Of a DNA stretch of 64,000 nt, positions 1,109-30,852 are shown in pieces. The number at the start of each line of letters is the position of its first letter. Position 1 is the stretch's first letter. Source of the stretch: Pelagibacterium halotolerans B2 (GTDB taxonomy: Bacteria > Pseudomonadota > Alphaproteobacteria > Rhizobiales > Devosiaceae); contig NC_016078.1 in NCBI RefSeq assembly GCF_000230555.1, forward strand, positions 1,302,001-1,366,000. The letters run 5' to 3'. Below the pieces are notes generated by a model. That model made no database searches, was not told the DNA's origin, and saw nothing but the letters and a program-made list of their open reading frames with translations. Made by a program: the position numbers and the translations under genes.

Positions 1109-2458
1109 ATGCGCCTTTCCCGCTATTTTCTGCCCGTCCTCAAAGAGACGCCTAAAGAGGCGGAAATCATTTCCCACCGCCTGATGCTGCGCGCCGGCAT
1201 GATCTCCCAGCAGGGGGCAGGCATGTACGCCTGGCTGCCACTGGGCTACAAAGTGCTGCGCAAGATTCAGCAGATCATAGAGCAAGAGCAGAACCGGGCA
1301 GGGGCCATCGAACTTCTGATGCCCACGCTGCAGTCGGCGGATCTGTGGCGCGAGTCGGGGCGCTACGAGGACTACGGCAAGGAAATGCTCCGGATGCAGG
1401 ATCGCCATGAGCGCGACATGCTCTACGGTCCGACCAATGAGGAGATGATTACCGACATCTTCCGCTCTTACGTCCGCTCCTACAAGGATCTGCCGCTCAA
1501 TCTCTACCATATTCAGTGGAAGTTTCGCGACGAGATCCGTCCGCGCTTCGGCACCATGCGGTCTCGTGAGTTCCTGATGAAGGATGCCTATTCCTTCGAT
1601 CTCGACAAGGACGAGGCCGTCAAGGCTTACAACCGCATGTTCGTGGCTTATCTGCGCACCTATTGGCGCATGGGGCTGACGGCGATCCCGATGCGTGCGG
1701 AAACCGGCCCTATCGGCGGCGATCTTTCGCATGAGTTCATCGTTCTCGCCGATACCGGTGAAAGCGGCGTATTCTGCCACGCAGACATGCTCGACAAGCC
1801 GATCCCGTCTGCCGATACCGACTTCATGGACGATCTGTCTGGTATCGTCGCCGACTGGACGTCGCTTTATGCTGCAACCGAAGACATGCACGACGAAGCC
1901 GACTTCTCCGCGAAGGTGCCCGAGGATAAGCGCATCGCTGCGCGCGGCATCGAAGTGGGCCAGGTTTTCTATTTCGGAACAAAATATTCCGAACCCTTGG
2001 GCGCCGCAGTGACCGGTCCTGATGGCAAGGACATTACCGTGCATATGGGCTCATACGGCATTGGGCTGACCCGTATCGTGCCGGCCATTATCGAAGCCAG
2101 CCACGACGAAAACGGTATCATCTGGCCGGTCTCGGTCGCACCCTTTGAGGTTACCCTCATCAACCTCAAGTCTGGCGACGCCGAATGCGATGCTGCAAAC
2201 GAAAAGCTTTACAACCAGCTCCACGCGGCGGGCATCGATGCGCTATATGATGACCGCTCCACGGGGGCCGGGCAGAAGTTCGCGACATCCGACCTCATCG
2301 GTATTCCGTTCCAGCTTATTGTCGGCCCGCGTGGTCTGGCCTCGGGCGAAGTCGAGATCAAGCACCGCAAATCCGGAGAACGTGAAACCATCGGCATCGA
2401 AGATGCGGTTTCCCGCCTCAAGGCGCTCATCGAACCCGAACGCAGGGACAACGCTTGA
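1109..2458 (+). CDS. proS: Prolyl-tRNA synthetase
   Basis: This class II aminoacyl-tRNA synthetase activates proline with ATP and charges tRNA-Pro in the cytoplasm. The class II core is visible: the [11 protein letters not shown] motif near residues 36-46, TNEE at 109-112, motif 2 (RDEIRPRFG, 140-148) and motif 3 (GSYGIGLTR) before the C-terminal anticodon-binding domain. At 449 residues it is the short alphaproteobacterial form, without the large editing insertion found in the E. coli-type enzyme between motifs 2 and 3. The ATG at 1109 has a GGAG ribosome-binding site 5-6 bases upstream. Its stop overlaps the TTG start of lolC, so the two genes are coupled. Confidence 0.95.
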
Positions 2459-3822
2459 CCTCCGCCGACGCCGCCCGGCAGCAAAAAGGGACACGACCGT
2501 TTTCACGTTTCGAATGGATCGTGTCCGGTCGGTACCTGCGCGCTCGCCGAAGCGATGCATTCATTTCGGTGATCGCAGCGCTGACCATGATCGGCATCGC
2601 CATTGGTGTTGCCACCCTGATCGTCGTCATGAGCGTCATGAACGGGTTTCGTGACGAGCTCCTGTCCAAGATATTGGGATTGAACGGCCATTTCACGGCT
2701 TTTCCCATCGAAGAGACATTTGACGACTACGAGGCGGTCCGGGATCGGCTTGAGGGTGTCGACGGTGTGGTTTCCGCAGTGGCCTTCGTCGAAGGACAGG
2801 CGCTGGTTACCGGTACTTACAATTCCACTGGTGCCAATGTGCGCGGCATGACGCTTGCCGATATCGAAAAACTCCCGCTGCTCTATTCGAGCACGCTTGC
2901 CGGCGGTTGGGACGATTGGGACGATCTTCAGGGTGTAGCCATCGGCTCGCGCATGGCGTCCCAGCTTGGCGTGACCGTCGGCGATACGATCACCATCGTT
3001 ACGCCCGACGGCCCGCGCACACCGCTCGGCTCCACGCCGCAAATTCGCTCTTACCCGGTAAACGTCGTCTTCGATGTCGGCATGGTCGAATTCGACTCGC
3101 TGTTCATCTTCATGCCTATCCGCGCCGCGCAGACCTATTTCCGCCTCTACGAGGACCGGTTGCGCGAAGGCATGGAAGAGCCTGACATCATGGCCAGTGA
3201 CGAGGAAATCGACGCGGCCTACGAGCGAATCTATACGGCAACCGCGGTAGAGGTCTTCCTCAACGACCCCGACGCGACCTGGGATATGCAGCTCGAACTT
3301 GAGCAGGCCGCGGGACGTCCAATGGTCTTTACCGACTGGCAGCGGCGCAACGCGACATTCTTTTCCGCGCTACAGGTCGAGCGCGTGGTGATGTTCACAA
3401 TCCTTTCGATGATCGTTCTTGTCGCCGCTTTCAATATCATCTCCAGCCTCGTGATGCTGGTGAAAGACAAGGGCGCCGATATCGCGGTACTGCGCACCAT
3501 GGGCGCCACACGCTCCTCGATTATGCGCATTTTCTGCATCACCGGAACGGCCATCGGCTTTATCGGAACAATTGCCGGCTTCCTGCTCGGCCTCGTGCTT
3601 GCGGTCAATGCCGAAGCTATCAGGGCCTGGGTATCAAATGTCATCGGCGTGGCGCTTTTTCCGCCCGAGGTCTTCATGCTCTCCCAACTTCCGTCACGTG
3701 TCGATGCGCTCGAAGTGACCGTTGTGCTCGTCATGGCGCTGGGGTTGTCTTTCCTCGCGACGCTGTATCCTGCCTGGCGCGCGGCCCAATACGATCCGGT
3801 GGAGGCGTTGCGCTATGAGTGA
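2455..3822 (+). CDS. lolC: Lipoprotein-releasing ABC transporter permease LolC/LolE
   Basis: This inner-membrane permease of the Lol system extracts mature lipoproteins from the inner membrane and passes them to LolA. The 455-residue protein has the FtsX/MacB-type topology: one N-terminal helix (about residues 37-60, after the PFSRFEW..RYLRARR start seen in LolC/E), a large periplasmic domain, and three C-terminal helices (about 311-335, 358-386, 418-442). It ends with the usual DPVEALRYE. The start is a TTG at 2455 overlapping the proS stop (TTGA), with AGGGA 6 bases upstream; no in-frame ATG fits the conserved N-terminus. Alphaproteobacteria commonly have a single LolC/E-type permease. Confidence 0.92.
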
Positions 3823-4501
3823 TGTGCTTCTTGACCTCAAGGATGTCCGACAGACCTATGGCGATGGGCAAGGGGCCGTTCACGTCCTCAACGGTGCCGA
3901 TCTGACCGTCAATCGCGGTGAGATCGTCGCGCTCATTGCGCCATCGGGTGCCGGAAAGTCGACATTGCTCCACATCTGCGGCTTGCTGGAGCGCCCGACG
4001 GGCGGTGATGTCGATATCGACGGCGAACGGACGGCCAAGCTCGCGGACCGCCAGCGCACGCTGCTCCGCCGCCACCTCATCGGCTACGTGTATCAGTTCC
4101 ACCACCTGCTGCCTGAATTCAGCGCTCTGGAAAACGTCACAATGCCGCAATTGATCGCAGGTGAAAGCCAGCGGGACGGCGATCGGCGCTCAAGGGAGTT
4201 GCTTGACGCCATGGGGATTGGTCATCGCACCACGCACCGGCCGGCCGAACTTTCAGGCGGGGAGCAACAGCGTGTCGCCATAGCGCGCGCGGCGGCCAAC
4301 AGGCCCAGCCTTATTCTGGCCGATGAGCCCACCGGCAACCTCGACCCGGCGACCTCCGACACGGTATTCTCGGCGCTTGCAGAACTCATCCGCCAGCAAA
4401 ACGCCGGCTGCATAATCGCCACGCACAATCACGATCTCGCCCGCAAGGCCGACCGCATCGTGACCATAACAGACGGCCGCATCCAGCCCGCGACCCTATA
4501 A
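3815..4501 (+). CDS. lolD: Lipoprotein-releasing ABC transporter ATP-binding protein LolD
   Basis: This 228-residue ATPase powers lipoprotein release by the LolCD complex. Walker A is at residues 42-50 (APSGAGKST), the Q-loop glutamine is Q94, the ABC signature LSGGE is at 146-150, and Walker B (LILADE) ends at D170-E171. The switch histidine follows in IATHN. I chose the ATG at 3815 because it overlaps the lolC stop by 8 bases and gives the standard LolD N-terminus; a longer upstream frame exists but would read through the lolC 3' end. Its place directly behind the permease makes the Lol assignment firm within the MacB/LolD family. Confidence 0.93.
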
Positions 4502-4632
4502 ACGCTGGTCGACTTTCTCCTACCGGTCCGACGAGAGCTAGGCTGGAACCTGGGCCAACGCGCGCTTCCTGCCCTTTGATCGACGCTGCTGTACTGGATT
4601 GGGGCCAGGCTGCCGCATGCCCCTCCCTTGTC

Positions 4633-4655
4633 ACCCCGGGGCTTGTTCCCGGGGT
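4633..4655. repeat. Palindromic intergenic repeat (CCCGGG type)
   Basis: A perfect inverted repeat ACCCCGGG / CCCGGGGT with a 7-base loop (GCTTGTT) lies in the 380-bp gap between lolD and the next small gene. Close relatives occur at 42429-42451 and in two inverted pairs near 50.1-50.5 kb, so it belongs to a dispersed REP-like family. Apart from this and the LexA-like boxes downstream I see nothing in the gap. Confidence 0.6.
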
Positions 4656-4825
4656 CCAGCAGCATCTCCGCAACGGCGACGGCAGCAGTTTTGCTTGGAA
4701 GCGGATCCTCACTAATCCGTACCAACTTCGTGCCATCCTCCTCTCTCGAAAGCTTGGCACCGCCATTTTGGCCGGCAAGGCTTTCTTAACCAACGCCGAT
4801 GTCGACCTGTGAACCCTGTGGACAG

Positions 4826-4861
4826 GAACAAAGCACGAATATATAAGAACAAACCATAAAC
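4826..4861 (+). promoter_or_regulatory. Two near-consensus LexA boxes over a -10-like element
   Basis: Alphaproteobacterial LexA binds GTTC-N7-GTTC, which is GAAC-N7-GAAC on the other strand. Here GAAC-N7-GAAT (4826-4840) and GAAC-N7-AAAC (4847-4861) each match 7 of 8 defined bases and share GAACAAA with the perfect lexA box at 27338. A TATATA element at 4840-4845 lies between them, so bound LexA would cover the promoter of the small gene that starts at 4882. Confidence 0.5.
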
Positions 4862-4881
4862 ACTGTGCAACGGAGGCTTCC

Positions 4882-4980
4882 ATGCTCGATTTCGTCAAGG
4901 ACTTCATGGCTCTGGTTTCGCTCACGGCCTTTGGTGGCATTACGCTGCTCTATCTCGATATGATGCCCTACCTCGTCTGA
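4882..4980 (+). CDS. Small single-pass membrane protein, candidate SidA-like SOS division inhibitor
   Basis: A 32-codon gene beginning MLDFVKDFMA, with an ATG at 4882 preceded by a good ribosome-binding site (CGGAGG, spacing about 6). Residues 8-27 form one hydrophobic helix; the N-terminus carries two Asp and one Lys, and the C-terminus is short. LexA-like boxes lie directly upstream. Caulobacter SidA is a 29-residue, LexA-controlled inner-membrane peptide that blocks division by acting on FtsW/FtsN. I recall that it also sits close to dnaE, as this gene does, but I cannot confirm that here. Size, topology, position and regulation all fit, but peptides this short cannot be assigned by sequence alone. 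Confidence 0.6.
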   Translation: MLDFVKDFMALVSLTAFGGITLLYLDMMPYLV

Positions 4981-5068
4981 TTCCCTGCTGTGCAAAAGCC
5001 GTCCTCAAGGTGGCATCGCAAGGCACGGAATGGCACAAAGGCAGTCCAGCATATTCGGGTAGTTTGAA

Positions 5069-8000
5069 ATGTCCGGTCCCGGTTTCGTCCATCTTCACGT
5101 CCATTCGGCTTTCTCCCTGCTTGAGGGTGCTCTACCGCTTGGCACAATTCTCGAGATGGCCAAGGCAGATGGACAGCCCGCTATCGGTATTGCCGACACC
5201 AACAATCTGTTCGGCGCGCTAGAGTTTTCCGAGAAGGCGTCGGGCAAGGGCATCCAACCAATTATTGGTTGCGAACTGGCCCTCGATTTTGGCGCCGATG
5301 CCGACAAGCCATCGGACCGTGTCAATCTAGGCAAGGGATCGGTCGTTTTGATCGCCGCCGATGCTGTCGGGTTCGCAAATCTGGCCGAACTCGTCTCTCG
5401 GGCCTATCAGGAAGGCTGCGATGGGCGGACGGCAATCCACATCGACTGGTTGGTCGATAACGCACTCGGTCTGCTCTGCCTGACGGGTGGGCCCGAAGGG
5501 GCTATCGACCCCTACCTTGCTGCCGGGCTCGACGCCCAGGCCCAGTCGCGACTGTCGGTTCTCCATCGTATATTCGGCGACAGACTTTATGTGGAGATCC
5601 AGCGCCACGATAGGGCGCTGGAAAACGCCGTCGAACCGCGCCTGATCGATCTTGCCTATACCCTCGATTTGCCGCTTGTGGCCACAAACGAACCCTACTT
5701 CCCCAGGCAGGAGGATTACGATTCCCATGACGCCCTGCTGGCCATCGCCGCCGGCTCGGTCGTAGCGCAAACCGAGCGTCGCCGGTTGTCCGACCAGCAC
5801 TATTTCAAGACACGGCAGGAAATGATCACGCTCTTTTCCGACCTGCCCGAGGCCTTGGAGAACACCGTCGAAATTGCCCAGCGCTGCAGCTATCGCCCGC
5901 ATACGCACGACCCCATTCTTCCCAAATTCGCCGCGGCGGATGGGGTGGGTGAGGAGGAAGCTGTGGCCGCCGAAGGCGAGGAACTGGCCCGGCAGGCACG
6001 CGAGGGGTTAAGGATGCGCCTGGCCGACTACGGCCACGCTCCCGACCGCACCACCCAGGAGTATGAAGAGCGGCTCGAATTCGAAATCAAGGTGATCCGG
6101 GACATGAAGTTCCCCGGCTATTTCCTTATTGTTGCCGACTTTATTAAGTGGGCCAAAGCCCACAATATTCCCGTCGGCCCGGGCCGCGGGTCGGGTGCGG
6201 GCTCACTGGTGGCCTATGCGCTGACCATCACGGACCTCGATCCGCTGCGTTACAATCTGCTCTTCGAGCGCTTCCTCAATCCTGAACGCGTATCGATGCC
6301 GGACTTTGACATCGATTTCTGCCAGGAGCGCCGCGAAGAGGTCATCCGCTACGTTCAGGACAAATACGGCTACGAGCAGGTCGCCCAGATTATCACCTTC
6401 GGAACGCTGCAGCCGCGCGCCGCGTTGCGCGACGTGGGCCGCGTGCTCCAGATGCCCTACGGGCAGGTTGATCGCATTTGCAAGCTGGTCCCCAACAATC
6501 CCGCCAATCCCGTGACGCTGGCCCAGGCGATCAATGACGAGCCGCGCCTGCAGATGATGCGCGACGAGGACGAGACCGTCGCCGAACTGCTGCGCATCGC
6601 CGGCAAGCTCGAAGGTCTGTTCCGGCACGCCTCGACCCATGCCGCCGGTATCGTGATCGGCGACCGCCCGCTGCAAAAGCTGCTGCCGCTTTATCGCGAT
6701 CCGCGCTCGGACATGCCGGTCACCCAGTACAACCTCAAATGGGTCGAACCGGCGGGCCTCGTAAAGTTCGACTTTCTCGGGCTGAAGACGCTGACCACGA
6801 TCCGGTATGCCGTCGAAATGGTGAAGGAAACCGGCGTCGACCTCGATATCGACGCCATCCCGCTCGAGGATGCGCCCACCTACAAGCTCTACGCCGATGG
6901 CGACACCTACGGCATCTTCCAGTTTGAAAGTCCCGGAATGCGCCGCGCTCTTGTGGAGCTCAAGCCGGACCGTATCGAAGACCTGATCGCCATGAACGCG
7001 CTCTATCGGCCCGGTCCGATGGATAACATTCCCAGCTTCATCAACCGCAAGCATGGCCGCGAAGACGTGGAATACCCACACGAGACGCTCGCCGCCGTCC
7101 TTGATGAGACCTACGGCATCATTGTTTACCAGGAACAGGTGATGCAGATCGCCCAGTTGCTGTCGGGCTATTCGCTGGGCGAGGCCGACATGCTGCGCCG
7201 CGCCATGGGCAAGAAGATCAAGGCGGAGATGGACAAGCAGCGTGTCCGTTTCCAGGAAGGCGCCATCCGCAACGGCATCAAGAAGGGCCAGGCCGATACG
7301 ATCTTCGACCTGCTCGCCAAGTTCGCCAATTACGGCTTCAACAAGAGCCACGCCGCCGCTTACGCCTGGGTCTCCTACCAGACGGCTTATCTCAAGACCC
7401 ATTATCCCGAGCAGTTCTATGCAGCGTCCATGACGCTCGACATGGCGCAGACCGATAAATTGTCCGATTTCCGCCGCGAGGCGCAGAAAAAGGGCATCGA
7501 AGTTGTTCCTCCGTGCATCAATCGCTCGGAAGTCAATTTCTCGGTGCGTGATGGCCGCATTCTTTATTCGCTCTGCGCCGTAAAGGGCGTGGGCCGCAAC
7601 GTCGCCGAACACATCGTCGAGATACGCGGTGACCGTCCCTTCAAGGACCTCGCCGATTTCGCCTCCCGTATCGATCCCAAGATCATCAACAAGCGGACGT
7701 TGGAAACCCTCATCAACGCGGGCGCCTTTGACCAGCTCAACAAGCGCCGTGAGCAGTTGGTCGAGGTCATCGATACCATAGTCAACACCGCCCAGCGCGA
7801 AACCAGCGGTCGGGCCGATGGCATTGTGGATATGTTTGCGTCCAGCCAGCCCCAGGCCATTACGCCACCCGAACATGTTGCGCCCTGGAGCCTGACCGAA
7901 CGCTTGGCCCGCGAACACGCGGCCATCGGCTTTTACCTTTCCGCCCACCCGCTCGATGACTACACCGAACTGTTCGAGAAACTTCGTGTCCAGCAATGGG

Positions 8001-8512
8001 CCGGCTTCGAGCGTGCGGCGCGAAACGGCGCCGTGGCAGGGCGTCTTGCCGGCACGCTGATCTCGCGTCAGGATCGTCGCACCCGGAAGGGTTCGACAAT
8101 GGCCATCATGATGTTTTCTGATCCCAGCGGATCGTTCGAGTGCATCGCCTTTTCCGAGCAGATTAACGACTTCGGGCGCTGGCTCGAGCCCGGAAAATCC
8201 ATAGTCCTCGAAGTGGGCGCCGATTCCCGCCCCGACGGGGTCAGGCTACGGCTTATCAATTGCGAGCCCATCGACGCCTCGGTCGAAAAGCTTGGCCGCC
8301 GCATGACGATCTTTGCCGGCAACGAGAGATGCCTCGCTCCAATCAAGTCCCAGCTTCAACCGGGCGGGGAAGGGGTGGTCAGCCTCGTTCTGGTCCGCGA
8401 CGAGGGCGAACGCGAATATGAAATCGAGTTGCCCGGCCAGTTTCGTCTCACGCCACAACTGGCTGGCGGGCTCAAGGCCATTACCGGCGTGGTCGATGTG
8501 CGCTTGAACTGA
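5069..8512 (+). CDS. dnaE: DNA polymerase III alpha subunit (replicative)
   Basis: This is the catalytic subunit of the replicative DNA polymerase holoenzyme, 1147 residues, the normal length for DnaE1. It begins with a PHP domain (FVHLHVHSAFSLLEG, residues 6-20). The palm contains the GPGRGSGAGSLVAYAL segment and the catalytic aspartates in MPDFDIDF (about residues 410-417). The fingers, helix-hairpin-helix (RDGRILYSLCAVKGVG) and C-terminal OB-fold (about residues 990-1070) follow in order. Its length and full PHP domain distinguish it from the shorter, SOS-induced DnaE2/ImuC. The ATG at 5069 lies 88 bp after the micropeptide, so SOS control of that promoter could extend into dnaE. Confidence 0.95.
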   Translation: MSGPGFVHLHVHSAFSLLEGALPLGTILEMAKADGQPAIGIADTNNLFGALEFSEKASGKGIQPIIGCELALDFGADADKPSDRVNLGKGSVVLIAADAVGFANLAELVSRAYQEGCDGRTAIHIDWLVDNALGLLCLTGGPEGAIDPYLAAGLDAQAQSRLSVLHRIFGDRLYVEIQRHDRALENAVEPRLIDLAYTLDLPLVATNEPYFPRQEDYDSHDALLAIAAGSVVAQTERRRLSDQHYFKTRQEMITLFSDLPEALENTVEIAQRCSYRPHTHDPILPKFAAADGVGEEEAVAAEGEELARQAREGLRMRLADYGHAPDRTTQEYEERLEFEIKVIRDMKFPGYFLIVADFIKWAKAHNIPVGPGRGSGAGSLVAYALTITDLDPLRYNLLFERFLNPERVSMPDFDIDFCQERREEVIRYVQDKYGYEQVAQIITFGTLQPRAALRDVGRVLQMPYGQVDRICKLVPNNPANPVTLAQAINDEPRLQMMRDEDETVAELLRIAGKLEGLFRHASTHAAGIVIGDRPLQKLLPLYRDPRSDMPVTQYNLKWVEPAGLVKFDFLGLKTLTTIRYAVEMVKETGVDLDIDAIPLEDAPTYKLYADGDTYGIFQFESPGMRRALVELKPDRIEDLIAMNALYRPGPMDNIPSFINRKHGREDVEYPHETLAAVLDETYGIIVYQEQVMQIAQLLSGYSLGEADMLRRAMGKKIKAEMDKQRVRFQEGAIRNGIKKGQADTIFDLLAKFANYGFNKSHAAAYAWVSYQTAYLKTHYPEQFYAASMTLDMAQTDKLSDFRREAQKKGIEVVPPCINRSEVNFSVRDGRILYSLCAVKGVGRNVAEHIVEIRGDRPFKDLADFASRIDPKIINKRTLETLINAGAFDQLNKRREQLVEVIDTIVNTAQRETSGRADGIVDMFASSQPQAITPPEHVAPWSLTERLAREHAAIGFYLSAHPLDDYTELFEKLRVQQWAGFERAARNGAVAGRLAGTLISRQDRRTRKGSTMAIMMFSDPSGSFECIAFSEQINDFGRWLEPGKSIVLEVGADSRPDGVRLRLINCEPIDASVEKLGRRMTIFAGNERCLAPIKSQLQPGGEGVVSLVLVRDEGEREYEIELPGQFRLTPQLAGGLKAITGVVDVRLN

Positions 8513-24484: not shown

Positions 24485-26608
24485 ATGGTCGACTTTCCGG
24501 TCGCCAAGCATCAGGAGAACGGACGAGCCGCCGGACCGCGCGCTTGGCTCGTGGCCCGTATCATCGCACTTTGCCGTGGCCTGTTCGGGGCAATCGTCGA
24601 TGCCGTAACCCAGCGGCGCAATTTCATTCTCTTTCCCTTCGCCATGATCGCCGGGCTCATTTTCTATCGGGTTGTGCCTGGCGAGCCGTCGTTCATTGCG
24701 CTGGCCCTAATGAACGCATCGGCCCTCATCGTCGCATGGACCGGTCGAGACGTTACGCCTGTTCGCGAAATCGCGCTGCTGGCTCTGATGTTTTCCATTG
24801 GAACCACGCTGCTGCCACTTCATGCCGTCCTCTTTGGCACCCCGATGCTCGATGCTCCGCGCTATGGCACTTACACCGCGCGTATCGAGGCGGTGACGTA
24901 CGACGATGGCGCCCAGCAGCGCTGGGTTCTCTCCAATATCAGCGGAGAGTTGGATTGGACGATTCCAGACGTTCGGCTGGCGCGCGTCACGGTGTCGGGT
25001 GCCTATGATGTGTCTCCAGGCGACGAGATGACCGCCCGCATCCGCTTTTACCCCGTTCCGCCGCCCGCAGTTCCCGGTGGCTACGATTCCCAGTTCGTGA
25101 GCCATTTCGATGGCATCGGCGCCTATGGCAATGCGTTCGGCGAAATCGATATCACCAAAAGCGGGCAGGGCGGACTGGTGCGCGTGGTCAAGGATGTCCG
25201 CACTGCCATCACGGCGCGCATCGTGGCTCAACTGGACGAGCGCATCGGCGGTATCGCGGCCGCCTTGGTTACCGGCGACCAGAGCCGGATCACCGAGGCC
25301 GATCGTGATCTCATGGCATCGGCCGGCATCGCCCATGTGATTTCAATTTCCGGTCTGCACCTGACGCTGGTTGCGGGCACCATGTTCACCTGTGTGCGCT
25401 TCCTTCTATCGCTGGGGCACGGGATCACCCAGCGCGTTCCCATCAAGAAGATCGCCGCCGGCTTCGGCATCGCCACAGCGCTGGCCTATATGGTGATTTC
25501 CGGCATGGTCATCCCGGCCGTGCGTTCCACTATCATGCTGGCGCTGGTCTTTGCCGCGATAATCGCCGGAAGGCAGGCGTTAACAATGCGCAACGTGGCA
25601 ATTGCCGCACTCGCGATTATCGTTTTCGAGCCCACAAGCGTCTTCCGCGCCTCGTTTCAACTCTCCTTCGCCGCCGTCATTGCGTTGATCGCCGCCTACG
25701 AACTGGCGCGACGAAACCGCGAGAACAGGGAGCGCCCGAACCGGAGTAGAGCGTTGGCGCTGGCCCTCGATATCACGACCACCAGTGTCATAGCGGGCCT
25801 CGCCACATTGGTGTTTACCGCCTACCACTTTCAGCAGACAGCGCCGTTCGGGGTGCTGGGCAATCTCATGGTGATGCCCATTGTGAGCTTTGTGATGATG
25901 CCGGCCGCACTGCTGGGAACCTTGTTGCTTCCCCTCGGTCTCGAAGCGATCCCCTATGCCGCGCTTGGCTGGAGCATAGAGGCGATGCTCTGGTGCGCCG
26001 CTTTCGTGCGACAGTTGAGTGGCGGATTTGACCCGAGCCCGATCCTTTCCCCGCTTGCTCTCATCGTGGCTCTGCTGGCGCTTGCATGGCTAGCCTATTT
26101 CCGAACCCGCATCCGGGTGGCGGGGGCGATACTTGCCGTTCCCCTGATCTCCGCTTTCTGCCTCGAGCAACCGCCCGATATCTTTATTGCCGATCAAAGC
26201 CAGGCCGTGGCCGTGCGCAGCGGCGAGCGCGTTGCCCTGATCGCCGGCCGCAACAACACCTTTGCCACCACCATCTGGTCGGAACGCTATTTGACGGTAA
26301 TCGAAAATGCCCATCCCGCCACAGGCTGCGACAGCCTCGGATGCGTTCTGTCGACACAAGACGGCTACACCATTGCGCTGGTCAGATCGCGGGATGTATT
26401 TGACGAGGATTGTCGCATCGCCGAAATCGTCGTCACACGCCTGAACGCGCCGCCACAATGCCGAAAGGCCGCCACATTGGTTATCGACGCTTCAGATCTC
26501 GCGCGGCACGGGGCTCATATGATCAACTGGAATGGCCCCGACCTGGCGCCCACGATTCGCACCGCCATCGACGGCCCGGATCGCCCCTGGCGCATCCAGC
26601 CTCAATAG
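24485..26608 (+). CDS. comEC: ComEC/Rec2-family DNA uptake membrane protein
   Basis: ComEC proteins form the inner-membrane channel for DNA uptake during transformation. This 707-residue protein has the N-terminal DUF4131-type helices and OB region (about residues 40-190), followed by the ComEC core: [15 protein letters not shown] and [16 protein letters not shown] in a multi-helix domain (about 280-560). The C-terminal 120 residues resemble a metallo-beta-lactamase remnant ([12 protein letters not shown]) but I see no HxHxDH metal site. The start is taken at ATG 24485, 79 bp from the divergent gltX start. Whether the organism is competent is unknown. Confidence 0.85.
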
Positions 26609-27309
26609 CGCCGCAGCAATCCCACAAGCCGCCCCTGAACCTTGACGCGATCCGGCCCGAAAATACGGGTTTCGTAAGCCGGGTTGGCAGCTTCCAGGGC
26701 CACCGCATTGCCCTTCTTGCGCAGGCGCTTGAGCGTCGCTTCCTCGTCATCGACAAGCGCCACCACGATCTCGCCATTGCCCGCCGCATCCTGCTTGCGG
26801 ATCAAGACCGTATCGCCGTCGAAAATTCCGGCATCGATCATCGAATCCCCACGCACTTCGAGGGCAAAGTGCTCGCCCGAACCGAGCATTTCGGGCGGAA
26901 CCGCTATGGAATGGGAATGGGTCTGGATTGCCTCGATCGGAACGCCCGCCGCAATGCGCCCCATAACCGGAATCGCCACCGATCCGCCATTGTCCTGTTT
27001 GGGCGCCATGGTCTTTGCCGGTACCTTGCCGAGCGTGCCCTCGATAACCGAAGGCTCGAACCGCGCCTTGCGCCCGCCCAGAGAGGGGTTCATGGAATCC
27101 GGCAGCTTGACCACCTCGAGCGCCCGCGCCCGGTTGGGCAGCCGTCGGATAAATCCACGTTCTTCCAGTGCTGTAATGAGCCGGTGGATGCCCGATTTCG
27201 ATTTCAGGTCCAGCGCTTCCTTCATCTCGTCAAAGGAGGGCGGAATGCCGCTCTCCTTCATCCGCTCATGGATGAACATCAGAAGTTCGTGCTGTTTGCG
27301 CGTCAACAT
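26602..27309 (-). CDS. lexA: SOS repressor LexA
   Basis: LexA represses DNA-damage genes and cleaves itself when RecA is activated. Residues 1-65 are the winged-helix DNA-binding domain. The self-cleavage site is A121-G122 (in GRIAAGVP), and the catalytic dyad is S156 ([10 protein letters not shown]) and K194 (EATLKRL). At 235 residues it is the long alphaproteobacterial form. Two perfect LexA boxes lie 29-68 bp upstream, so it is autoregulated. It overlaps comEC tail to tail by 7 bases. In related genomes moeA is its neighbour; here the catabolic island intervenes. Confidence 0.95.
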
Positions 27310-27337
27310 TGGCGAATCCCTCGGCGGCGTCGAATCG

Positions 27338-27377
27338 GAACAAATATTGAACTTTTATACATGTTCCTTAAATGTTC
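27338..27377 (-). promoter_or_regulatory. lexA: Two LexA boxes upstream of lexA
   Basis: GAAC-N7-GAAC at 27338-27352 and GTTC-N7-GTTC at 27363-27377 are both perfect matches to the alphaproteobacterial LexA direct-repeat operator, one in each orientation. They lie in the 29-68 bp interval before the lexA ATG, where an autoregulatory operator is expected. Confidence 0.85.
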
Positions 27378-29422: not shown

Positions 29423-30852
29423 GCGCCGCGTCGGCCCGCACGCCCAGCCTTCGCGCCCGGCTCTTCGTGCTGTTGGTCGTGCCACTGGTCTTCGTCGCCC
29501 TCGCGTCGAGCGTTGTGCGGTACTGGGCGGCACAGGATATGTCCAAGGACCTCTACGACGATACGCTCAAGGTCGTGGCACACGCCGTTGCCCGCGAGGT
29601 CGTGCTGACCAAGGGCGATCTTGTCGCCGATGCCCTGCTTGATTCCCTGGTCGGTGCGCTCGGCGATCCCATATTCTATCAGGTTCGCGCCGCCGACGGC
29701 CGCTTTGTCACCGGCCATTCCGATGCCCCGGTTCCCTCGGCCAGCCTCGATGTTCCGGGCGGAACACCGGTCTTTTTCGACAGCACCTATCATGGGCGCC
29801 CGGTGCGGGCGGTTGTCTTGCGTGAGTTCATTGCCGATATCGATTTTGATGGTTGGACCACGGTTCAGGTCTGGCAAACGGTCACTCAGCGCCAGGCGTT
29901 GAGCCTGTCGCTCGTTGGGCAATCTGTCTTCAATCTTCTGCTTATCGTGGGTTCTGCGGCGGTTCTGTTCTGGTTCGGTATCAATCGCGGCCTGACCCCG
30001 CTCACCGACTTGCGAAGCGCCGTGGGGCTGCGTTCGGCAAGCGACCTGCGCCCCATCCGACGTCCCGTGCCCCACGAGGTTGCGCCGCTGGTGGAAACGA
30101 TCAACAGTCTGTTTGCGCGGTTGCGTGAGGAGCTGGACAGACGCAACGCCTTCATCGGCAATGCAGCTCATCAACTGCGCAATCCCGTCGCCGCGATTCA
30201 GGCCCAGGCCGAAGCCGCGCTGACCGCGAGTACCGATAGCGGCCGCACCGCCCGGCTTGATGATCTCGCCCAGGCAGCACGCCAGCTCTCCCGCATGAGC
30301 CATCAATTGCTCAATTTTGATATCGCCAATGAGGGCAGGGGCGATGACCTGCAGCCACCCGCCGATCTGACCCCACTTGTCGCCGACGTCGCCCGCCGCC
30401 ACGTGCCTCGCGCCCTGGCGGCCCATGTCGATATCGAACTCGAACCGGCCCCCGAGCCGCTGCTGGTTGCCGGCAACCGGGTCATGCTCGAGGAGGCGAT
30501 CGACAATCTCATCGACAACGGCCTCAAATATGGCTGCGCCGAAGGTGGCCGGCTTTCGCTCGTTGTCGAGCGCATGGGAACCATGGCTGCCCTGACCGTC
30601 TCCGATGATGGCCCGGGAATTCCGCCCGAAGCCAGCGAACAAGTGTTTGGCCGATTCGTGCGCCTTTCCGATGACAGCGATGGGGGATGCGGTCTCGGGC
30701 TGTCGATTGTGCGCGCCATTGCGCAGAGGGCAGGGGGGGACGTCGATATCGTAGCCGTCGAACGGGGTTGCACCATGCGCCTCAGACTGCCCATTGCCCA
30801 ACCGCAGGGCAATGGGCAGAGCTCCGCAATCGGCAGTATGGCCGCGGAATAG
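29419..30852 (+). CDS. Sensor histidine kinase (TctE-like)
   Basis: A 477-residue membrane kinase. Helix 1 spans about residues 12-34, a periplasmic sensing domain lies between (about 35-165, of the type found in TctE), and helix 2 is about 166-188. The cytoplasmic part has a HAMP-like stretch, the phosphorylated H251 (NAAHQLRNP) and an ATPase domain with the N-box (EEAIDNLIDNGLKYG) and G boxes (DDGPGIPPEA, GGCGLGLSIV). ATGA overlap with the regulator confirms a two-component pair. The ligand is probably the tricarboxylate imported by the neighbouring transporter. Confidence 0.82.
   Translation: MSAASARTPSLRARLFVLLVVPLVFVALASSVVRYWAAQDMSKDLYDDTLKVVAHAVAREVVLTKGDLVADALLDSLVGALGDPIFYQVRAADGRFVTGHSDAPVPSASLDVPGGTPVFFDSTYHGRPVRAVVLREFIADIDFDGWTTVQVWQTVTQRQALSLSLVGQSVFNLLLIVGSAAVLFWFGINRGLTPLTDLRSAVGLRSASDLRPIRRPVPHEVAPLVETINSLFARLREELDRRNAFIGNAAHQLRNPVAAIQAQAEAALTASTDSGRTARLDDLAQAARQLSRMSHQLLNFDIANEGRGDDLQPPADLTPLVADVARRHVPRALAAHVDIELEPAPEPLLVAGNRVMLEEAIDNLIDNGLKYGCAEGGRLSLVVERMGTMAALTVSDDGPGIPPEASEQVFGRFVRLSDDSDGGCGLGLSIVRAIAQRAGGDVDIVAVERGCTMRLRLPIAQPQGNGQSSAIGSMAAE

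What the first reader, a model, noticed from the sequence alone, without database searches (positions are those of the whole stretch)
4826..4980. Candidate SidA-like, LexA-controlled membrane micropeptide beside dnaE
A 32-codon single-helix membrane gene has a strong ribosome-binding site and two 7-of-8 LexA boxes spaced around a -10-like element. Caulobacter SidA is a 29-residue LexA-regulated inner-membrane peptide that inhibits division (Modell and colleagues); I also recall it lying next to dnaE, which needs confirming. If so, this is a SidA-type SOS checkpoint outside the Caulobacterales, in a place annotation pipelines usually miss because of the length.
Basis: partly seen in the sequence, partly recalled or inferred. 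Interest (0 to 1): 0.72.

Follow-up and report, generated by a model that had tools for sequence, protein, structure and literature searches.

The report
SidA-like SOS division-stop micropeptide beside dnaE
A 32-amino-acid membrane peptide gene, easily missed because of its size, sits under what looks like a DNA-damage switch next to the replication gene dnaE and is a distant relative of the peptide SidA that stops Caulobacter from dividing while its DNA is broken, which suggests that this safety brake is spread across many alphaproteobacteria.

Summary
The 32-codon ORF (4882-4980) has a Shine-Dalgarno and two tandem 7-of-8 LexA-type boxes 21 bp apart around TATAAG, and lies directly upstream of dnaE. 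It is under purifying selection and present in 12 of 12 congeneric genomes, 7 of which have an 8-of-8 box.

The recalled link is right. In 25 of 25 named Caulobacterales genomes examined, a 29-30-aa TM peptide with LexA-type boxes lies just upstream of dnaE; all 22 distinct peptides match NCBI's SidA model NF033228.

The window peptide fails that model (0 of 140 genomes of its order pass) but is homologous: a profile built without its family scores it 23.4 bits, one built without the Caulobacterales set scores C. vibrioides SidA 23.1; 110 of 114 such peptides beat all 100 permutations of themselves. A perfect box plus TM micro-ORF upstream of dnaE occurs in 67 of 140 order and 18 of 103 other class genomes, against 0 of 700 and 0 of 515 shuffles.

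Most likely a SidA-type SOS division inhibitor. LexA binding, induction and FtsW inhibition are inferred.

The parts
4882..4980 (+). SidA-like micropeptide gene, 32 codons plus stop, single TM helix
4826..4840 (-). LexA-type box 1 (GAACAAAGCACGAAT on +), 7 of 8, in the -35/-10 spacer
   Evidence: conserved in relatives, 8 of 8 in 7 of 12 congeners
4847..4861 (-). LexA-type box 2 (GAACAAACCATAAAC on +), 7 of 8, just after the -10, likely over the transcription start
4819..4824 (+). -35-like TGGACA, 17 bp before the -10
   Evidence: read from sequence; not reported by the consensus scan
4842..4847 (+). -10-like TATAAG between the boxes
   Evidence: conserved in 17 of 19 family-f1 loci aligned; not reported by the consensus scan
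4872..4876 (+). Shine-Dalgarno GGAGG, 5 nt before the ATG
5069..8512 (+). dnaE, DNA polymerase III subunit alpha, 88 bp after the peptide stop; no terminator-like site found between
   Evidence: NF004226 1455 bits, TIGR00594 1198 bits
3815..4501 (+). lolD, upstream neighbour
   Evidence: best model TIGR02211 LolD, 262.8 bits, below its cut-off of 307.75; follows lolCE 2455-3822 (443.7 bits, above cut-off)
26602..27309 (-). lexA, the presumed regulator
   Evidence: TIGR00498 185.2 bits, above cut-off 110.95; two 8-of-8 boxes upstream at 27338-27352 and 27363-27377

Best explanation
The ORF is a SidA homologue. In undamaged cells LexA binds the two boxes that fill the -35/-10 spacer and the start site and keeps the promoter off. 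DNA damage makes RecA trigger LexA self-cleavage, RNA polymerase starts, and a 32-aa inner-membrane helix is made that docks on the FtsW/FtsI/FtsN septal complex and holds back constriction until repair is done. Shown here: gene, boxes, conservation, homology and synteny with SidA, a lexA gene, and one FtsW-family match in the genome. Inferred: LexA binding, induction, membrane insertion, and FtsW/FtsN as target (from published SidA work).
For: Conserved peptide and boxes. Purifying selection. SidA itself lies at this place in named Caulobacterales: 25 of 25 genomes, 22 of 22 distinct peptides match NF033228 at E up to 1e-10, one strong match per genome in the 8 of 25 genomes searched for further copies. 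Leave-one-family-out homology in both directions, with permutation control; A2 vs A3 hhalign probability 81%, E 1.2e-5, 18 columns. Peptide (profile score above 10 bits) and 8-of-8 box occur together: order 63 both / 11 box only / 10 peptide only / 56 neither, class 18/2/0/83, Fisher p 1.5e-17 and 3.5e-18 (genomes treated as independent, which relatives are not). lexA with its own boxes in the window. FtsW-family match in 13 of 13 genomes, 309 bits in the window's genome, below the 337.5 cut-off. SidA is the LexA-controlled 29-aa inhibitor that binds FtsW (PMC4211646, passages).
Against: The window peptide does not match NF033228 at all, and identity to C. vibrioides SidA is 21% in alignment A4. 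Both window boxes are 7 of 8. 69 of 140 order and 85 of 103 class genomes fail the relaxed box-plus-ORF test, so the gene is often lost, moved or beyond the test. Similarity is confined to a TM helix and its flank, where convergence is easier than in globular proteins. No expression, binding or phenotype data.
Confidence: 0.83

Rival explanations
1. The LexA boxes serve dnaE: the promoter raises DNA polymerase III alpha during SOS, and the short ORF is only a leader or regulatory uORF.
For: A published comparative study lists dnaE of C. crescentus among genes reported as SOS regulated (PMC3323433 section 8). No terminator-like site was found between the ORF and dnaE, so read-through is possible.
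Against: The peptide sequence itself is under purifying selection and is homologous to SidA, a peptide with its own published function. Leave-one-family-out matches exceed permutations in 110 of 114. The distance to dnaE varies widely between families. Both roles may coexist.
Confidence: 0.08
2. A TisB/DinQ-like SOS membrane peptide that depolarises the membrane or slows metabolism, not a divisome inhibitor.
For: Same gross design: SOS control and one short TM helix; E. coli DinQ is such a peptide (PMC3567139, start of abstract in the listing).
Against: Homology and shared synteny with SidA; no promoter-like site on either strand between 4500 and 5200, though that scan is crude (it also misses the promoter proposed here) and an antisense RNA was not otherwise sought.
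Confidence: 0.06
3. Chance ORF and chance boxes.
For: Boxes with at most one mismatch are no more frequent in the window than expected.
Against: Conservation in 12 of 12 congeners with perfect boxes in 7; shuffled controls 0 of 700 and 0 of 515 under the strict test, 1 of 700 and 0 of 515 under the relaxed one; codon pattern.
Confidence: 0.01

Closest known systems
SidA of Caulobacter crescentus (NCBIfam NF033228, equivalog, 29 positions)
   Same: Gene just upstream of dnaE; tandem GAAC-N7-GAAC boxes, including a 7-of-8 GAAC...GAAT box in C. vibrioides like the window's first; 29 against 32 aa; one TM helix; shared core around (K/R)(D/E)..ALVS...F
   Different: 21% identity to the C. vibrioides peptide in alignment A4; not detected by NF033228; boxes 21 bp apart instead of 18; C. 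vibrioides carries an additional 8-of-8 box; the invariant F-V-W-M core of the Caulobacterales set is absent; in C. vibrioides another ORF sits between lolD and sidA
DidA of C. crescentus
   Same: Small single-TM, damage-induced division inhibitor acting on FtsW/I/N (PMC4211646, passages)
   Different: 71 aa, DriD-controlled and SOS-independent, other locus
YneA, ChiZ, SosA
   Same: DNA-damage-induced small membrane division inhibitors; YneA binds FtsW (PMC13396833, listing and passages)
   Different: ChiZ carries a LysM domain and SosA an extended helix; YneA's LysM domain is recalled; other phyla; no sequence link tested
SulA of E. coli
   Same: LexA-controlled division brake
   Different: SulA disrupts FtsZ polymerisation (PMC4211646); not a membrane micropeptide (recalled)

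Membership tests
SidA equivalog (NCBIfam NF033228) | Score above curated cut-off of 35 bits | tested here: not met
   Window peptide: no match to it at E up to 10, 1 or 0.001. 0 of 140 order genomes over cut-off, 65 with weaker matches at E up to 1; C. vibrioides is among the 7 of 14 control genomes that ring, of which one is over the cut-off
Wider dnaE-linked SidA-like family | Sequence homology with SidA beyond TM composition | tested here: met
   Leave-one-family-out profile 23.4 bits (window) and 23.1 (C. vibrioides) against a 99% control quantile of 5.1; above all 100 permutations of each; hhalign A2/A3 81%
Wider dnaE-linked SidA-like family | Gene directly upstream of dnaE | tested here: met
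   Window 4980 to 5069; 25 of 25 named Caulobacterales genomes
Wider dnaE-linked SidA-like family | Micropeptide of 24-47 aa (range of the 114 selected; the test allowed 24-50) with one TM helix | tested here: met
   32 aa, one helix 2-31
Wider dnaE-linked SidA-like family | LexA-type boxes at the promoter | tested here: met
   Two 7-of-8 boxes in the window, an 8-of-8 box in 7 of 12 congeners
Wider dnaE-linked SidA-like family | LexA binding and RecA-dependent induction by damage | not testable with these tools
   Needs gel shift or transcript data
Wider dnaE-linked SidA-like family | Inhibits division through FtsW/FtsN | not testable with these tools
   The structure tool takes one chain; an FtsW-family match is present in the genome
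Type I toxin of the TisB/DinQ kind | Antisense RNA antitoxin | tested here: inconclusive
   No promoter-like site on either strand 4500-5200 in a crude scan; no direct search

The most novel reading that the evidence does not exclude
sidA-dnaE is an ancestral SOS unit of the Alphaproteobacteria: a LexA promoter that drives a division-blocking micropeptide and reads on into the replicative polymerase gene, so that division arrest and polymerase supply are released together. It was inherited with dnaE in many families and lost in others, and was overlooked because the LexA site was credited to dnaE.
Probability: 0.4. Interest if true: 0.82.

Novelty: new member of a known kind. Interest (0 to 1): 0.7.

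Why it matters
SidA is known as the Caulobacter division brake, and NCBI's model for it passes none of the 140 genomes of the window's order that were searched. If the wider family works as SidA does, the SOS checkpoint of many alphaproteobacteria has a testable candidate at a predictable address, the gap before dnaE. The variety of sequences (34 unnamed family labels besides the Caulobacterales set) is a natural mutagenesis of a putative FtsW-binding helix, useful for finding which residues matter. It also warns that LexA sites listed for dnaE may belong to an unannotated small gene.

Tried and rejected
The automatic promoter/terminator scan found nothing: too strict for TATAAG. The class-wide search with the profile A2 gave mostly noise, although four weak hits (G444, G519, G587, G547) turned out to lie just upstream of dnaE when dnaE coordinates came in; so I anchored on dnaE instead. 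Weak YmiC hits (2 of 16 members of A2, best E 0.0012, NCBIfam; 1 member at 0.042, Pfam) were set aside as TM composition; A4, one peptide per family, gave none. hhalign of A4 against A3 (96%) is circular, since A4 contains the C. vibrioides peptide; I do not count it. RNA folding of the gap to dnaE shows no special structure (z 0.65). lolD synteny is only partial: a lolD-like match lies in the 1.5 kb before dnaE in 19 of 32 order, 19 of 23 class and 14 of 25 Caulobacterales loci with that much DNA. The 8-of-8 box alone is no proof: 136 in the window's genome against 68 for the reversed pattern. Whether Modell et al. 2011 discuss conservation could not be read (not held).

Limits of the survey. 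Order: all 140 genomes. Class: of 281 genomes with a dnaE match I used those with the best matches down the listed ranking, 106 loci, but left out G322 (a fragmentary hit) and added G444 and G519 out of rank because their peptide hits were already seen; then L099 and L105 (cut by contig ends) and L095 (duplicate of G519) were dropped, leaving 103. G444 is a hand-picked positive: without it the class figures are 17 of 102. The remaining class genomes were not examined. Three loci have under 500 bases upstream (L248, L321, L429) and count as they stand. The strict test misses the window itself (7-of-8 boxes); the relaxed test admits it (71 of 140, 18 of 103, 25 of 25; shuffles 1 of 700, 0 of 515, 0 of 125). 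The profiles were trained on peptides chosen with the box criterion, so box-peptide association is partly built in; the threshold came from reverse-strand ORFs.

Full report
What is there. The gap between lolD (3815-4501) and dnaE (5069-8512) holds a 32-codon ORF, 4882-4980, with GGAGG five bases before its ATG. Upstream lie TGGACA (4819-4824), a 17-base spacer filled by a 7-of-8 LexA-type box (4826-4840), TATAAG (4842-4847) and a second 7-of-8 box (4847-4861). The GTTC-N7-GTTC consensus for Caulobacter LexA is from PMC12700426 and PMC9578287 (passages). dnaE, lolCE and lexA were identified by curated models above cut-off; LolD is the best model for the lolD gene but scores below its cut-off.

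More than chance. Counted alone, boxes with at most one mismatch are not enriched in the window (56 against 49 expected). The comparative evidence is what counts. The peptide is found in 12 of 12 same-genus genomes and, with the single sequence at E up to 10, in 7 of 12 other-genus genomes of the family, one of them (G014, E 0.54) not checked further (23 of 41 genomes in all, the window's own included). In the 20 loci fetched, dnaE follows in 15 by motif and in three more by dnaE coordinates (G017, G022, G040); L013 and L016 were not settled. Of the 12 congeners 7 have an 8-of-8 box. TATAAG is kept in 17 of the 19 family loci aligned. Within the genus the promoter (identity 0.63) and gene (0.75) stand out from the flanks (0.30 upstream, 0.52 in the gap to dnaE; dnaE start 0.74). 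Substitutions fall mainly on third codon positions (496/176/1076) and pN/pS is 0.135/0.582. The model is one helix.

The link to SidA. From the PDB alignment of Caulobacter LpxI I obtained 80 named loci, mostly Caulobacteraceae, located dnaE in the genomes of 25 that I picked (23 carry a genus name, Caulobacter or Phenylobacterium, one is titled Caulobacteraceae bacterium and one Caulobacterales bacterium), and read the upstream gap. All 25 have a 29-30-aa TM peptide behind LexA-type boxes. In C. vibrioides DSM 9893 it is 29 aa, preceded by an 8-of-8 box and two 7-of-8 boxes. All 22 distinct peptides match NCBIfam NF033228, cell division inhibitor SidA, at E up to 1e-10, the C. vibrioides one with 72.4 bits against a cut-off of 35 (21 of them already). 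Eight of these genomes, searched for further copies, have one strong match each, two of them a second weak one (E 0.14 and 0.47). So SidA does sit beside dnaE. An earlier comparative study counts dnaE of C. crescentus as SOS regulated (PMC3323433, section 8 read whole); that this is the same site is my inference. SidA as a LexA-controlled 29-aa membrane inhibitor binding FtsW is from PMC4211646 (passages).

Homology of the window peptide. NF033228 does not see it and is over its cut-off in none of 140 genomes of the order, 65 of which have weaker matches at E up to 1. Better-built profiles do see it. I located dnaE in 140 of 140 order genomes and in 281 of 289 class genomes, took upstream DNA, and examined all 140 and 103 of the class genomes, chosen as told under Tried and rejected (one of them, G444, a hand-picked positive). 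Strict test (8-of-8 box within 500 bp upstream of dnaE, then within 140 bp a 24-50-aa TM ORF with a Shine-Dalgarno): 67 of 140 and 18 of 103, 17 of 102 without G444; dinucleotide shuffles 0 of 700 and 0 of 515. A box alone: 74 of 140 and 20 of 103 against 13 of 700 and 5 of 515. Relaxed test, which admits two tandem boxes with one mismatch and so the window: 71 of 140, 18 of 103, 25 of 25 Caulobacterales; shuffles 1 of 700, 0 of 515, 0 of 125. The positives fall in 25 of 44 order and 9 of 63 class family labels, 34 in all, besides the Caulobacterales set; the labels are unnamed, so an overlap with Caulobacteraceae cannot be ruled out by name, but no representative of the 34 matches NF033228 at E up to 1. 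With profiles trained without the family under test, 80 of 140, 20 of 103 and 25 of 25 genomes exceed the 99% quantile of reverse-strand ORFs; 13 of these lack the boxes of the relaxed test or the right pairing with them. 110 of 114 selected peptides beat all 100 permutations of their own residues, the window's (23.4 bits, best permutation 5.3) and C. vibrioides' (23.1, best 10.6) among them. Profile comparison of the window's family with the Caulobacterales set gives 81% probability over 18 columns. Peptide (above 10 bits) and 8-of-8 box come and go together: order 63 both, 11 box only, 10 peptide only, 56 neither; class 18, 2, 0, 83; the profiles were blind to boxes at search time, though trained on box-selected peptides, and related genomes are not independent.

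Results against. Labels f2, f5, f22, f27, f29 and f32 in the order sample (28 genomes) show no perfect box and no peptide that pairs with one, one f22 genome having a doubtful 6.5-bit score. Most class genomes examined (85 of 103) fail. Three f17 genomes have a weakly matching peptide without the usual boxes. Four of 114 peptides (labels f4, f41 twice, f50) are not above all permutations. Identity to SidA is low (21%).

How it most likely works. LexA on two boxes in the spacer and at the start would block RNA polymerase; RecA-driven LexA cleavage would free it. The peptide would insert as one helix and act as SidA does on FtsW/FtsI/FtsN (PMC4211646, passages; a published low-confidence model puts SidA on FtsW TM7, PMC13396833, passages). 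The window's genome has one FtsW-family match. No terminator-like site was found between the gene and dnaE, so read-through into dnaE is possible. None of these steps beyond sequence is shown here.

Known or new. The kind is known: SidA. New, as far as my searches reach, is that it extends far beyond the Caulobacterales at a fixed place. Full-text searches for SidA with dnaE, alphaproteobacteria, Sinorhizobium or 'SidA homolog/ortholog', for LexA with dnaE, and for rhizobial or alphaproteobacterial SOS division inhibitors showed no paper saying so in the listings and the passages that I read, but the library holds only openly licensed papers and the founding paper (Modell 2011) is not held. 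No Pfam model covers the peptide. The genomes of the survey are unnamed, so I cannot give species or confirm the order's name.

Noticed in passing
window 26602-27377: lexA lies about 22 kb downstream with two perfect boxes before it, one on each strand, a likely self-regulated repressor.
   Followed up: partly
window 29951-29976: Two overlapping 8-of-8 GTTC-N7-GTTC matches inside a long ORF on the other strand; probably chance.
   Followed up: no
L322, L331, L332 (f17), upstream of dnaE: Diverged micropeptide with weak profile scores (9-11 bits) that failed the box test; possibly a homologue that left LexA control.
   Followed up: no
L225, L234 (f10), upstream of dnaE: Strong peptide match (26.0 and 22.7 bits) in ORFs opening with GTG and no perfect box; start codon or regulation may differ.
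   Followed up: no
L209: In C. vibrioides a reverse-strand ORF (366 aa, nucleoside-hydrolase-like by eye) sits between the lolD-like fragment and sidA.
   Followed up: partly
G000:C1:1441952-1442021: Two perfect A/T-rich LexA-type boxes 55 bp apart elsewhere in the genome, a likely further SOS promoter.
   Followed up: no
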